Shown here piece after piece: positions 21,911-52,647 of a DNA stretch of 64,000 nt. The stretch comes from Parvibaculum sp. (lineage in GTDB: Bacteria > Pseudomonadota > Alphaproteobacteria > Parvibaculales > Parvibaculaceae). The translations under genes were made by a program, and so were the position numbers. Position 1 is the stretch's first letter. Every line of letters begins with the position of its first letter. The DNA lies in assembly GCA_017642695.1 (NCBI GenBank), contig JAEPQD010000001.1, positions 372,001 to 436,000 of the forward strand, written 5' to 3'. The notes below the pieces were generated by a model. That model was given only the letters and a program-made list of their open reading frames with translations, did not search any database and was not told the DNA's origin.

Positions 21911-21940
21911 GGGCACCTCGTTGTCTGGATAGGGGTGCCC
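21911..21940 (-). promoter_or_regulatory. Hairpin enclosing the folD ribosome-binding site
   Basis: GGGCACC (21911-21917) and GGTGCCC (21934-21940) form a perfect 7-bp stem. On the folD message the 3' arm is GGGCACC's partner GGTGCCC, directly in front of ATG and containing the GAGGTG ribosome site. Folding would hide the site. No known folate riboswitch pattern is recognised. Confidence 0.45.
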
Positions 21941-22063
21941 AGGCGAGCGGCGCAAACGGGGCCCTGCGCTCCACGGTGGTCGTCTCCACCTTATTCTCGC
22001 CAGTCACGCAGGATGGCGGCACTATAATAAGGTCCGGCACCCCGGGACAAGGCCGCGCGAGCG

Positions 22064-50210: not shown

Positions 50211-50708
50211 TTAGCCGATCGCCATCTCGTTGGTCTCGCCGGTACGAATGCGGACAACCTGCTCCAGCGGCTGCACGAAGATCTTGCCGTCGCCGGTCTT
50301 GCCGGTATTGGCGGCCTTTTCGATTTCGCGCACTGCCTTCTCGACCAGTTCGGCGCTCACCGCGACGTCTATCCGGACCTTCGGAACCTCCATCACCTGG
50401 TATTCCGCGCCCCGGTATATTTCCGAATGGCCCCGCTGGCGGCCGAAGCCCTGCACCTGGGTGACGGTGATGCCCTCGATGCCGATGGCGACCAGCGCAT
50501 CGCGCAGCTCTTCATACTTATGGGGACGGATAATCGCGGTGATCATGCGCATCGGATAGCTCTTTTCATATTCGAGACCATGAAGGACCAGGCGCCGGAT
50601 GGCCTCGGACCGGGACGGCAGATCCGCCTGATCGCGGCGCCAGCGGTCCACCACATTGTTGAACTCCGCAGAGGCAACAAGCTGAATTCTCTGGTCAAGT
50701 TTTTCCAT
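50211..50708 (-). CDS. P-II signalling protein with N-terminal ribbon-helix-helix-like domain (fusion)
   Basis: 165 residues from ATG 50708 (GAGG six bases upstream; ATG 50720 is a weaker option). Residues 53-165 are a complete P-II protein: MRMITAIIRPHKYEELRDALVAIGIEGITVTQVQGFGRQRGH, the T-loop tyrosine in IYRGAEYQV, the B-loop TGKTGDGKIFV and C-loop VVRIRTGETNEMAIG. All nucleotide and 2-oxoglutarate contact regions are conserved. Residues 1-52 (LDQRIQLVASAEFNNVVDRWRRDQADLPSRSEAIRRLVLHGLEYEK) follow the Arc/CopG ribbon-helix-helix pattern: a short strand, a helix, then SRSEAIRRLV. There is no stop between the parts. The protein may bind DNA directly in response to nitrogen or energy state, which is inference. 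Confidence 0.85.
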   Translation of the reverse strand: MEKLDQRIQLVASAEFNNVVDRWRRDQADLPSRSEAIRRLVLHGLEYEKSYPMRMITAIIRPHKYEELRDALVAIGIEGITVTQVQGFGRQRGHSEIYRGAEYQVMEVPKVRIDVAVSAELVEKAVREIEKAANTGKTGDGKIFVQPLEQVVRIRTGETNEMAIG

Positions 50709-50755
50709 ATTCAGCCTCATACACACAAATTGGATTCGGCCAGCTAACCCTGAAG

Positions 50756-50771
50756 AAGCGATAAAAGTGCC
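50756..50771 (-). promoter_or_regulatory. Candidate sigma-54 (-24/-12) promoter of the P-II fusion gene
   Basis: On the minus strand GGCAC (50771-50767) and GCTT (50759-50756) have the exact 12-base G-to-G spacing of TGGCAC-N5-TTGCW promoters, about 50 bp ahead of ATG 50708. The T before GG and one T before GC deviate from consensus. Many glnB/glnK genes use sigma-54 promoters. Confidence 0.5.
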
Positions 50772-50779
50772 GGAAATCC

Positions 50780-50841
50780 AAGGAATTACGCTCTTTCTAG
50801 CAGCCGGGCGCCCGGCTGTCGAAAAAAATGTGTAATTCCTT
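50780..50841. promoter_or_regulatory. Nested dyad between the P-II fusion gene and the small divergent gene
   Basis: AAGGAATTAC (50780-50789) and GTAATTCCTT (50832-50841) are perfect inverted repeats. Almost concentrically inside them is an 18-bp perfect palindrome, CAGCCGGGCGCCCGGCTG (50801-50818). It lies just upstream of the sigma-54-like site, where an activator would bind. It has no U-tract suited to a terminator on either strand. Confidence 0.5.
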
Positions 50842-50882
50842 CTTTTAAGCAGATTGACAAACTTACACATGTTACGCATATT
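50828..50882 (+). promoter_or_regulatory. Promoter of the small YRG-repeat gene with inverted operator sites
   Basis: A perfect TTGACA (50854-50859), 17-bp spacer and CATATT (50877-50882) face the small gene. ATGTGTAA (50828-50835) and its exact complement TTACACAT (50863-50870) form an inverted pair, the second copy lying inside the promoter spacer. Occupation would block or bend the promoter. The ribbon-helix-helix part of the divergent P-II fusion is the natural candidate to bind. Confidence 0.6.
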
Positions 50883-50920
50883 GAGCGTCAAGACGCGAGA
50901 CGCAAACACAGGAGGCAGCC

Positions 50921-51094
50921 ATGAGCGATCTGACCTACAGGGGCGCCAACCACCACGGCGACAAGAACAACGCACAGGCGCAGGACGCGGTGCTCAGCTA
51001 TCGCGGCGCGAGCCACCACTCGGCCGACAGCCACAAGGGCAAGCCCCAGGCGAACCGCGCGGGCCTGCGCTACCGCGGCGTCCCGCAGCGCTAA
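50921..51094 (+). CDS. 57-residue protein with three YRG repeats (DUF4278-like)
   Basis: The translation has three repeats, LTYRGANHH, LSYRGASHH and LRYRGVPQR, separated by polar Asn/Gln/Lys-rich spacers. AGGAGG lies ideally before ATG 50921, a strong promoter lies upstream and a terminator downstream, so the gene is very likely real. The YRG repeat recalls DUF4278 proteins, best known from cyanobacteria, whose function is unknown. The paired histidines might bind metal. It has no signal peptide or membrane segment. It is divergent from the P-II fusion gene and may be its regulatory target. Confidence 0.75.
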   Translation: MSDLTYRGANHHGDKNNAQAQDAVLSYRGASHHSADSHKGKPQANRAGLRYRGVPQR

Positions 51095-51169
51095 AGGGAG
51101 ACTGCCGCTCCCGCCGTCTGAGGGTTGCCTTCCCCAGCGCGTCTATCGGCGAGCAGCCTCCGTTAGGCG

Positions 51170-51204
51170 AAAGGCCGTACCCCTTGCGGGGACGGCCTTT
51201 CTGT
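51170..51204 (+). terminator. Intrinsic terminator of the small YRG-repeat gene
   Basis: AAAGGCCGT-A-CCCC pairs with GGGG-ACGGCCTTT around a TTGC loop (one bulged A), followed by CTGTTTG. It is 76 bp after the stop codon and may also serve the convergent homospermidine synthase gene. Confidence 0.8.
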
Positions 51205-51225
51205 TTGTCCGGTATGTGAGCCCGG

Positions 51226-52647
51226 TCAGACGACGCGGAAATTCTTGAACTGCCAGGGGTCCTCCTCGTCGAGGTCCTCCTCGAAAAGTAGGCCACGGTC
51301 GAGAAGCGGGGTCCAGTCGCTATAGGCGCCGATCATGTTGCCGAGATAGGGCCTCGCAATTTCGAGGATGCGCTCGAAATCCATTTCCTCCGGCTCCGTG
51401 ATCCCGTGGGCGGGATTCTCGATCGCCCAGACGACACCGGCGAGCACCGCGACAGTTACCTGCAGGCTCGTCGCATTGTTGTGGGGCGCGCAGGCCCGGG
51501 CTTCCTCGATGGTGAGTTGCGATCCGTACCAGTAAGCCCCCTTGGCGTGACCCATCAGCAGCACGCCGAGTTCGTCCATTCCTTCCGAAATCTCGTCCAT
51601 CATCAGCCGCTTGGACTTCTGAATCTTCCAGTTCTTGCCGGCAAGCTCATGAAGCGAGAGCACGGCGACATGGCAGGGATGATAGGCGTAGTGAACGGTC
51701 GGGCGGTACTTCGCCTCGCCGCCTTCCTTCACCGTCAGGTAATCGGCGAGCGAAATCGACTCGCCATGCGTGATGAGCCAGCCGTGAAACGGCCCTTCGT
51801 TCGGCGTCCAACTCCTCACCCGCGTGGAAGCACCGGGGCGTGCGAGATAGATCGCACAGCCTGTACCCGAAGCATGCGTGTGGCCGTCCGGCGGAAAATG
51901 CCTTTCATGCGCCCCCCAGCCGAGCTCGGCGGGCTGGCAGCCCTCGCCAACGAAACCATCAACGGACCAGGTATTGACGAACTCGCCGATGGCTTTGGGA
52001 ATTGGAGATACCTGTGTATCGCGCTCCGCGATGTGGATCGATTTGATGCCGAGACGCGACGAAAGCCGGGCCCATTCCTCGCGCGTTTTCGGGGTGGCGG
52101 TCTCGACACCCGTATCCCGAGCGATGTCGAGGAGCGCCCGCTTGACGAAATGCGAGACGAGCCCGGGATTGGCGCCATGTGTAAGGACGGCGGTCGGCCC
52201 GCCATCATATTTTGCCCGGAGCGCGAGCGCCCTTTCGCGCAGCGCGTAATTCGAACGCTGCGAGGGCGACTGCGACGTGTCGGTATATTGCCCGCTCCAG
52301 GGCTCGATACAGGTATCAAGATAGAGCGCGCCCTTGGAGCGGCAGAACTCGACAAGCGCGAGCGAAGAAACGTCCACCGACAGATTGACGAGAAAATCGC
52401 CCTCGCCCAACAGCGGGTCGAGAACGGAGAGATAGTTCCCCTTGCGGAGCGGCATCACCGTGAACTTGACGCCATAGGCCTCCGCTTCCGCGCGGCCGGC
52501 CTCTTCCGCCGTGACAATCGAAATCCGGCCCGGCTCGATATCGAGATGCCGCAGAAGAAGCGGCAATACGCCCTGTCCGATACTGCCAAAGCCCACCATG
52601 ACGATGCGGCCCGCGAAGCGGGTGAGTTTGTTGTCGGTCTCGGCCAT
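51226..52647 (-). CDS. hss: Homospermidine synthase
   Basis: 473 residues closely following characterised bacterial homospermidine synthases such as that of Blastochloris viridis. The NAD-binding site is IVMVGFGSIGQGVLPLLLRHLDIEPGRISIV, the active-site region is LNLSVDVSSLALVEFCRSKGALYLDTCIEPWSGQYTD, and LTHGANPGLVSHFVKRALLDIA and AERDTQVSPIPKAIGEFVNTWSVDGF follow. It joins two putrescines, or putrescine and spermidine, into sym-homospermidine with NAD+ as prosthetic group, the main polyamine of many alphaproteobacteria. ATG 52647 has GAGG upstream. An ATG four codons earlier is possible. Confidence 0.95.
   Translation of the reverse strand: MAETDNKLTRFAGRIVMVGFGSIGQGVLPLLLRHLDIEPGRISIVTAEEAGRAEAEAYGVKFTVMPLRKGNYLSVLDPLLGEGDFLVNLSVDVSSLALVEFCRSKGALYLDTCIEPWSGQYTDTSQSPSQRSNYALRERALALRAKYDGGPTAVLTHGANPGLVSHFVKRALLDIARDTGVETATPKTREEWARLSSRLGIKSIHIAERDTQVSPIPKAIGEFVNTWSVDGFVGEGCQPAELGWGAHERHFPPDGHTHASGTGCAIYLARPGASTRVRSWTPNEGPFHGWLITHGESISLADYLTVKEGGEAKYRPTVHYAYHPCHVAVLSLHELAGKNWKIQKSKRLMMDEISEGMDELGVLLMGHAKGAYWYGSQLTIEEARACAPHNNATSLQVTVAVLAGVVWAIENPAHGITEPEEMDFERILEIARPYLGNMIGAYSDWTPLLDRGLLFEEDLDEEDPWQFKNFRVV

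What the first reader, a model, noticed from the sequence alone, without database searches (positions are those of the whole stretch)
50211..50708. P-II signalling protein fused in frame to a ribbon-helix-helix-like DNA-binding domain
Seen: one uninterrupted frame encodes 52 residues with the Arc/CopG pattern (DQRIQLVA strand, helix, SRSEAIRRLV helix) directly followed by a full P-II domain with intact T-, B- and C-loops. Known: P-II proteins sense ATP/ADP and 2-oxoglutarate and normally act by binding other proteins such as AmtB, GlnE or PipX, not DNA. Inference: this protein could be a one-component transcription factor in which nitrogen/energy state gates DNA binding. Trimeric P-II and dimeric RHH symmetry would have to be reconciled, perhaps as a hexamer. 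I do not know of a characterised example.
Basis: partly seen in the sequence, partly recalled or inferred. Interest (0 to 1): 0.85.

Follow-up and report, generated by a model that had tools for sequence, protein, structure and literature searches.

The report
Nitrogen sensor fused to DNA-binding domain
A widespread bacterial nitrogen-sensing protein carries here a built-in DNA-binding domain and is paired with a conserved DNA site and a small partner gene, so it may switch genes directly instead of passing its signal to other proteins.

Summary
The fusion is real and conserved. Window 50211-50708 (-) encodes 165 residues: a ribbon-helix-helix (RHH) domain (about 1-47) joined to a complete P-II domain (53-165). 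It occurs in 17 of 27 genomes of the genus, 14 of 18 of a second family and three other alphaproteobacterial MAGs. The P-II halves form one clade. The RHH core is more conserved between lineages than the P-II half; its best solved match is the NikR DNA-binding domain; relatives stand alone on viral contigs.

New here: the fusion is part of a three-piece cassette. The divergent gene (50921-51094 +) encodes a DUF4278 peptide, a family linked to glutamine riboswitches in cyanobacteria. Between them lies a conserved box, ATGTGTAA[G/C]TT, inside the DUF4278 promoter. In 40 genomes of the order, fusion, DUF4278 and the 17-bp box occur in the same 17 and in none of the other 23. The association recurs, less completely, in distant lineages.

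Best reading: a NikR-like one-component repressor whose sensor is P-II, controlling DUF4278 and perhaps itself. DNA binding, ligand gating and oligomer are inferred, not shown.

The parts
50211..50708 (-). RHH-PII fusion gene, 165 aa
   Evidence: full length (residue 1 or 2 to 164/165) in 18 of 78 loci
50553..50708 (-). N-terminal ribbon-helix-helix domain and linker (residues 1-52)
   Evidence: 28 of 52 columns invariant in 14 sequences; profile match to NikR 1q5v residues 2-43
50214..50552 (-). P-II domain (residues 53-165)
   Evidence: Pfam P-II E 9e-29; 41 distinct solved sequences matched, all best stretches within residues 52-164; Y51, Q39, K58, K90, R101, R103 equivalents invariant in A1 (residue roles recalled)
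50860..50870 (+). Operator-like box AACTTACACAT (ATGTGTAAGTT on the fusion gene's strand)
   Evidence: the 17-bp box, up to 1 mismatch, once per genome in the same 17 of 40 genomes that have the fusion; core TGTGTAA[G/C]T invariant in 12 box-bearing loci
50854..50882 (+). Promoter-like site of the DUF4278 gene: TTGACA, 17 nt, CATATT; the box lies in its spacer
   Evidence: the only one found in 50600-51250; mean 0.2 in shuffles
50828..50835 (+). Second, inverted half-box ATGTGTAA, 27 bp from TTACACAT of the first (seen in Parvibaculum only)
   Evidence: inverted repeat 50825-50835 / 50863-50873
50794..50822 (-). Possible promoter of the fusion gene (TCGACA, 17 nt, TAGAAA), just downstream of the second half-box
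   Evidence: read by eye; not reported by the scan
50921..51094 (+). Divergent gene for a 57-aa DUF4278 (YRG-repeat) peptide
   Evidence: PF14105 E 2e-9, 38.1 bits, cut-off 25.3

Best explanation
The protein is an RHH transcriptional repressor whose sensor is a P-II domain. The RHH domain, of a type found alone on viral contigs and related to the DNA-binding domain of NikR, recognises the box ATGTGTAA[G/C]TT. The box lies between -35 and -10 of the DUF4278 promoter, or (L087, by eye) just downstream of a -10, so binding would block RNA polymerase. A second half-box beside the fusion's own possible promoter suggests autoregulation in Parvibaculum. ATP/ADP and 2-oxoglutarate in the P-II clefts, and possibly GlnD uridylylation of the Tyr51 equivalent, would set the arrangement of the RHH domains and hence DNA affinity, as nickel does in NikR. 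Because P-II is a trimer and RHH domains work as dimers, the active form is most likely two trimers bridged by three RHH dimers. I expect repression under nitrogen limitation (ATP and 2-oxoglutarate) and release of DUF4278 synthesis under nitrogen excess, by analogy with cyanobacterial DUF4278 proteins. Shown by sequence: the fusion, its conservation, the box, the partner gene and their co-occurrence. Inferred: DNA binding, repression, ligand gating, sign and oligomer.
For: Full-length fusion in several lineages under purifying selection; P-II halves of 13 fusions one clade, support 96/90. RHH profile finds NikR. Relatives of the RHH domain on 43 viral contigs; the nearest stand-alone one, L088, lies near an Arc-like gene and opposite a KilAC-domain antirepressor gene. 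Fusion, DUF4278 and 17-bp box in the same 17 of 40 genomes, none of the three in the other 23; all 17 divergent. Perfect box at the YRG-peptide promoter in L015, L016 and L087, one-mismatch box in L018, L021 and L086; box (two spellings allowed) in 10 of 14 loci of the second family. Three of 3 DUF4278 genes in genomes without an RHH-domain hit have no box within 250 bp at up to 2 mismatches. L017 and L020 keep a box without a YRG gene in the DNA held, so the box goes with the regulator. Ligand positions invariant (roles recalled). GlnD-like and GlnE-like frames in the same genome.
Against: No experiment. RHH_1 is below Pfam's cut-off in the window protein. The structure model is weak, mean pLDDT 67.6 with residues 1-11 under 50, and its search listed only P-II chains in the 50 rows shown. 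The second half-box was not found in L015-L017 at up to 2 mismatches. In the second family 4 of 14 loci lack the YRG gene and 4 of 14 lack the box, one of these with truncated upstream DNA; L084, L267 and L270 have neither, so the fusion persists without the cassette. There the box is 0.3-0.7 kb from the fusion, with a tRNA-Gly gene next to the fusion in every one of the 14 loci, so autoregulation is not supported. Between L018 and L019 the RHH part has changed more than the P-II part (pN 0.098 against 0.040). In L018-L021 the first start has no ribosome-binding site by my measure while the internal one has. The genomes counted are related, so co-occurrence is not so many independent events.
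Confidence: 0.65

Rival explanations
1. The protein binds DNA at the box through its RHH domain, but the P-II part acts mainly as an oligomerising or partner-binding body; regulation comes from a bound partner such as the DUF4278 peptide, or from GlnD, rather than from small ligands.
For: The T-loop has a group-specific change: Glu at the position of Phe55, followed by V/I-P-K, in the fused rows examined (18 rows; L087; L267), against Phe in 25 and Leu in 2 of 27 unfused P-IIs that I picked from the loci. This suggests a different partner. The DUF4278 or YRG peptide is the usual neighbour.
Against: The residues that bind ATP and 2-oxoglutarate in other P-IIs (roles recalled) are invariant, which is unexpected if ligands no longer matter.
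Confidence: 0.17
2. The RHH domain is an oligomerisation or protein-docking module only; the fusion works like other P-II proteins by binding proteins, and the box belongs to another regulator.
For: RHH domains dimerise; no DNA binding has been shown; three loci keep the fusion with neither box nor YRG gene.
Against: In the order the box is present where the fusion is (17 of 17) and absent where it is not (0 of 23), and it persists near the fusion where no YRG gene is seen (L017, L020). 28 of 52 N-terminal residues, many of them charged or polar, are invariant. I saw no other regulator common to the box-bearing loci, though not every neighbour was annotated.
Confidence: 0.12
3. Two products: full-length RHH-PII and a shorter P-II from an internal start at codon 53 (50552 in the window), forming mixed trimers (also with GlnB or GlnK), the ratio setting how many RHH domains a trimer carries.
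For: Met53 is invariant. Internal ribosome-binding energy is -4.0 to -6.2 kcal/mol in L018-L021, where the first start shows none (+0.3 to +0.6), and -10.1 in L017 and -9.1 in L087.
Against: In the window and the Parvibaculum orthologs the internal site is weak (-2.1 to -2.7) and the first start, where measured, is stronger (-2.7 to -6.5). In no locus is the internal site clearly better than synonymous codon choice gives (fraction as good 0.06 to 0.78). Met53 may be a relic of the ancestral P-II start.
Confidence: 0.06

Closest known systems
NikR, nickel-responsive RHH repressor
   Same: N-terminal RHH DNA-binding domain, the best solved match of this domain (1q5v), followed by a C-terminal ligand-binding domain (passages of PMC7949043) of ferredoxin-like type (fold recalled)
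   Different: The sensor is a complete P-II domain, not the NikR metal-binding domain; P-II proteins are trimers while NikR is a tetramer (passages of PMC7949043 and PMC6243067)
GlnB/GlnK P-II proteins
   Same: Whole P-II domain with Tyr51 and ligand positions kept; up to 58% identity to solved chains in the rows
   Different: N-terminal RHH domain; Phe55 replaced by Glu; P-II proteins normally act by binding other proteins
Cyanobacterial PII-PipX-NtcA/PlmA axis
   Same: P-II status is passed to transcription
   Different: There P-II works through separate partners (passages of PMC6243067); here the DNA-binding domain is in the same chain
Cyanobacterial DUF4278 proteins (N-terminal part of IF17/gifB; glutamine riboswitch)
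   Same: DUF4278 proteins whose genes are linked to nitrogen status (passages of PMC6316151; PMC11288750)
   Different: There control is by a glutamine riboswitch, shown for gifB; here no Rfam riboswitch reaches threshold at this gene, and an RHH-PII gene and box take that place
Small RHH proteins on viral contigs
   Same: Related RHH domain; the SEAIRRLV motif itself is partly by construction, since the scan used it as a pattern
   Different: Most are short stand-alone proteins, a few have longer tails; none of the 43 loci holds a P-II motif

Membership tests
P-II (PF00543) | Sequence profile of the whole domain | tested here: met
   E 9e-29, 100 bits, cut-off 25
P-II (PF00543) | Conserved nucleotide and 2-oxoglutarate positions and Tyr51 | tested here: met
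   R38, Q39, Y51, K58, G87, G89, K90, R101, R103 equivalents invariant in the 18 rows of A1 (roles recalled)
P-II (PF00543) | Hydrophobic residue at T-loop position 55 (seen in the unfused P-IIs here; not a defining feature in the literature) | tested here: not met
   Glu in the fused rows examined against F 25, L 2 of 27 unfused
P-II (PF00543) | Homotrimer | not testable with these tools
   monomer model only
Ribbon-helix-helix (CopG/Arc/NikR type) | Sequence profile | tested here: met
   Met by the family profile (NikR 1q5v E 8e-4) and by the relative L119 (over the RHH_1 cut-off); the window protein alone scores 16.1 bits, under the cut-off of 20.5
Ribbon-helix-helix (CopG/Arc/NikR type) | Intertwined dimer with two-stranded sheet binding DNA | not testable with these tools
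   helices predicted at 14-26 and 33-50; strand region pLDDT under 50
NikR | C-terminal NikR nickel-binding domain | tested here: not met
   No NikR C-terminal family among the 4 matches at E up to 10; the C-terminal domain is P-II
DUF4278 (partner gene) | Sequence profile over the curated cut-off | tested here: met
   38.1 bits, cut-off 25.3

The most novel reading that the evidence does not exclude
A P-II protein that is itself a transcription factor: two P-II trimers bridged by three RHH dimers bind a dedicated operator, with ATP/ADP, 2-oxoglutarate and possibly uridylylation gating the binding, and control a small DUF4278 peptide of nitrogen metabolism. It would be a self-contained nitrogen switch doing the job that a glutamine riboswitch does for the same peptide family in cyanobacteria.
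Probability: 0.55. Interest if true: 0.88.

Novelty: new variant of a known kind. Interest (0 to 1): 0.8.

Why it matters
P-II is among the most widespread signalling proteins, and the control of transcription by P-II described in the passages read runs through partner proteins. A P-II with its own DNA-binding domain, a local operator and one evident target gives a minimal system in which 2-oxoglutarate and energy sensing could be read directly as DNA binding, and poses a clean question of how threefold and twofold symmetry are combined. It also ties the obscure DUF4278 family to nitrogen control by a second, unrelated route, and might serve as a natural 2-oxoglutarate biosensor.

Tried and rejected
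Internal start at 50552: not favoured in Parvibaculum, open elsewhere. Chance or pseudogene fusion: rejected by conservation and low dN/dS. Glutamine riboswitch at the DUF4278 gene: none in the Rfam scan of the window at gathering thresholds. DUF4278 as PirA: the PirA paper's main text holds no 'DUF', so my recalled link was dropped. Other box targets: the 11-mer without mismatch occurs once in 15 of 27 genus genomes, twice in one and not in 11, one of which (G394) has the 17-bp box with one mismatch; the reversed control pattern occurs 0-5 times per genome, so no wider regulon was found. RHH-PII on plasmids: 121 records match P0001; of these I looked into the best-ranked only, an annotated ordinary glnK whose alignment begins 69 bp before its annotated start; 106 records were not listed. 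RHH domain in the annotated phage collection: no match at E 1e-3. Fusions beyond those reported: a first motif check used a faulty expression that could not match P-II; it was redone, where 7 of 7 fusion controls and 4 of 4 unfused P-II controls were recognised and none of the 35 other RHH loci, nor any of the 43 viral loci, held a P-II motif. No fusion was thus seen outside Alphaproteobacteria, but the phylum search (398 genomes) and the pattern scan are samples. Literature: nine searches; those aimed at a P-II protein with an RHH or other DNA-binding domain listed no paper that, by title and start of abstract, describes one. The library is open-licence PMC only.

In one search my script read the plus strand of loci whose match is on the minus strand (L087, L090, L091, L095, L098, L103, L117); those rows were ignored. 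The full-length alignment A3 misaligned the stand-alone RHHs and was not used for a model. Confidence of the main reading was lowered by 0.01 and that of the two-product rival raised by 0.01 on re-reading.

Full report
Observation. Window 50211-50708 (-) is one open frame of 165 codons. Residues 53-158 match Pfam P-II (E 9e-29) and residues 31-46 match RHH_1 weakly, below its cut-off. The start at MEKL is supported by conservation: upstream of it the frame diverges and is closed by stops at different places, in L008 and L013 a few codons upstream, and in Parvibaculum nucleotide conservation resumes at AATATGGAAAAACT.

Is the N-terminus an RHH? A profile of 49 sequences (fusions, viral-contig proteins and other relatives; A4) matched E. 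coli NikR 1q5v residues 2-43 at E 8e-4 as its best hit among PDB sequences. The other three hits were a tyrosine-kinase chain (0.073, taken as chance), P. horikoshii NikR (0.38) and a HicB antitoxin (0.67). The AlphaFold model, from a shallow alignment of 18 rows, has helices at 14-26 and 33-50 and then P-II-like elements, but mean pLDDT is 67.6 and residues 1-11 are under 50. Foldseek listed P-II chains in all 50 rows shown, of 1485 matches, so the model does not itself prove the RHH fold.

Spread. One search returned 78 loci; 18 match from residue 1 or 2 to 164/165, and one further MAG has the gene split between two contigs (L014, L054). They are Parvibaculum and near relatives (89-100% identical), three MAGs labelled Hyphomonas, Filomicrobium and Hyphomicrobiaceae (65-66%), and a group that is marine by its record names (58-62%). 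In whole-genome searches the fusion occurs in 17 of 40 genomes of the order, all 17 among the 27 of the genus (in G402 the gene is cut by a contig end), in 14 of 18 genomes of the second family, f49, whose genomes are 0.9-1.4 Mb, and in 6 of 385 genomes drawn from the class. In a tree of 37 P-II domains the 13 fused ones form one clade with support 96/90; the unfused ones were chosen from the loci and the own genome.

Selection. Within Parvibaculum (7 sequences, 21 pairs) dN/dS is 0 to 0.063 for the RHH part and 0.017 to 0.136 for the P-II part, with high synonymous divergence. In five pairs between lineages the RHH core (residues 3-41) is 77-85% identical and the P-II part 57-70%. Over all 52 residues the difference is smaller, and between L018 and L019 the RHH part changed more (pN 0.098 against 0.040). 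28 of 52 N-terminal columns are invariant in 14 sequences.

Origin of the RHH domain. Scanning viral contigs with the domain returned 43 loci. One of the two search patterns was SEAIRRLV, so that motif is partly by construction; but the similarity extends over most of the domain in the better matches, and most of those read are short proteins. None of the 43 loci holds a P-II motif. The nearest stand-alone relative, 56% identical, is L088 in a bacterial genome. It sits near an Arc-like gene and opposite a gene with KilAC antirepressor and Rha domains, and near-identical genes lie on two viral contigs (L121, L122). A related domain also heads a YfbU protein (L119). The domain is most simply a phage-type repressor domain put in front of a P-II protein. 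The direction of that event is inferred.

The partner and the box. The divergent gene 50921-51094 (+) encodes a 57-aa DUF4278 peptide (38.1 bits, cut-off 25.3). Aligning the upstream DNA of 13 Parvibaculum rows (window and 12 loci) showed a conserved box ATGTGTAA[G/C]TTTGTCAA. In the window it overlaps the only promoter-like site found, TTGACA 50854-50859 and CATATT 50877-50882, with AACTTACACAT in the spacer. An inverted half-box lies 27 bp away, just upstream of what I read by eye as the fusion's own promoter.

Co-occurrence. In the same 40 genomes of the order, DUF4278 is found in 17 at E 0.001 or better, all over its cut-off, and the 17-bp box, allowing one mismatch, exactly once in 17. 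These are the same 17 genomes that hold the fusion; the other 23 have none of the three, and the reversed control pattern gave no match. All 17 are divergent, with the box starting 136-186 bp upstream of the fusion's start. At 11 bp and no mismatch the box occurs once in 15 of 27 genus genomes, twice in one and not in 11, which points to a local operator. Of the ten genus genomes without the fusion, five have the neighbouring saccharopine-dehydrogenase-type gene. In one of the five, G413, the flanking genes (hydrolase and that gene on one side, histidine kinase and HerA-type gene on the other, recognised by similarity to the window's proteins) are joined without DUF4278, the fusion or the CoA-transferase gene, as in an empty or emptied site. 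G406 ends at a contig edge there, and in G395, G415 and G416 I did not recognise the window's neighbours. G393 and G397 have the cassette without the neighbour gene.

Other lineages. L015 and L016 have a divergent YRG peptide and the perfect box. The DUF4278 search found L015's peptide but not L016's; the peptides of L016, L018 and L021 are under the cut-off (22.1, 15.8 and 13.4 bits), but keep three YRG motifs (for L016 and L018; for L021). L017 has the box but no YRG peptide in the DNA held. In the second family, 10 of 14 fusion loci have a YRG gene upstream on the same strand and 10 of 14 have the box, allowing RTGTGTAASTT or ATGTGTAACTC. Nine have both; L269 has the gene but only 494 bp upstream, L085 has the box alone, and L084, L267 and L270 have neither. 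L270 keeps what looks like the 3' end of a YRG gene. A tRNA-Gly gene stands next to the fusion in all 14 of these loci and in L018-L021. The core TGTGTAA[G/C]T is invariant in 12 loci aligned because they have a box.

Box against shuffles. Of 20 upstream stretches of 600 bp (window and 19 loci), 16 hold a perfect 11-bp box, with 0 of 200 shuffles as good in each; L020 has one mismatch (6 of 200), L018 and L019 have two (75 and 70 of 200) and L021 three (199 of 200). Within 800 bp, L018 and L021 have a one-mismatch box (6 of 200 each). In L087 the box is a near-perfect palindrome, 7 of 8 pairs; in Parvibaculum only 4 of 8, perhaps because one arm overlaps the -35 element. Three DUF4278 genes in genomes without an RHH hit (f121) have no box within 250 bp at up to two mismatches.

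Nitrogen link. A review describes DUF4278 as the N-terminal part of the glutamine-synthetase inactivating factor IF17 and as the protein family mainly associated with glutamine riboswitches in cyanobacteria; it adds that this part of IF17 is dispensable for its function but promotes stability (passages of PMC6316151; see also PMC11288750). What DUF4278 does alone is not told in these passages. No Rfam riboswitch was found at the gene. The same genome holds two other P-II genes, one between frames that look like ammonium transporters (by eye), and one GlnD-like and one GlnE-like frame, so uridylylation of the conserved Tyr is possible.

Mechanism. A box between -35 and -10 suggests repression. 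[quoted passage not shown] P-II is a homotrimer with the ferredoxin fold whose T-loops move with ATP/ADP and 2-oxoglutarate (passages of PMC6243067). Putting RHH on P-II thus gives a NikR-like layout with a different sensor and symmetry. The three RHH chains of one trimer cannot all pair internally, so I propose two trimers bridged by three RHH dimers; mixed trimers with GlnB or GlnK are an alternative. The T-loop carries Glu in place of Phe55 in the fused rows examined, against F in 25 and L in 2 of 27 unfused P-IIs picked from the loci, which suggests partners other than those of GlnB and GlnK. The expected sign (release of DUF4278 under nitrogen excess) rests on analogy only. An internal start giving plain P-II as a second product is not favoured in Parvibaculum but stays open in L017, L087 and L018-L021, where the internal ribosome-binding site is stronger.

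Verdict. The fusion, the operator-like box and the partner gene are well supported by comparison. That the protein binds the box and that P-II ligands gate it is the best reading but is untested. The layout is a new variant of RHH one-component regulators and, as far as the searches listed in Tried and rejected show, an undescribed form of P-II.

Noticed in passing
window 21930-22017 (-): A ZMP/ZTP riboswitch reaches its Rfam gathering score; its gene was not examined.
   Followed up: no
L256 (G413), between about 2916 and 3152: The site of the cassette is empty: flanking genes are joined without DUF4278, RHH-PII and the CoA-transferase gene.
   Followed up: partly
L018-L021, L084-L087, L261-L270: A tRNA-Gly (gcc) gene lies next to the fusion in all 18 loci of the second family scanned, some of them probably the same genome twice.
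   Followed up: partly
L119 (G400) and L093 (G097): A related RHH domain is found in front of a YfbU domain in L119 and, by similar sequence, in L093: another body with this DNA-binding head.
   Followed up: no
L200, L201, L202 (genomes G311, G121, G225): DUF4278 genes in another alphaproteobacterial family with no RHH hit and no box; how they are regulated is open.
   Followed up: no
L270, within 400 bp upstream of the fusion: What looks like the 3' end of a YRG gene, with no box found, while the fusion stays intact.
   Followed up: no
L089 and L101 (G175): Two RHH genes of this type close together, next to a gene that resembles an antirepressor (resemblance recalled).
   Followed up: no
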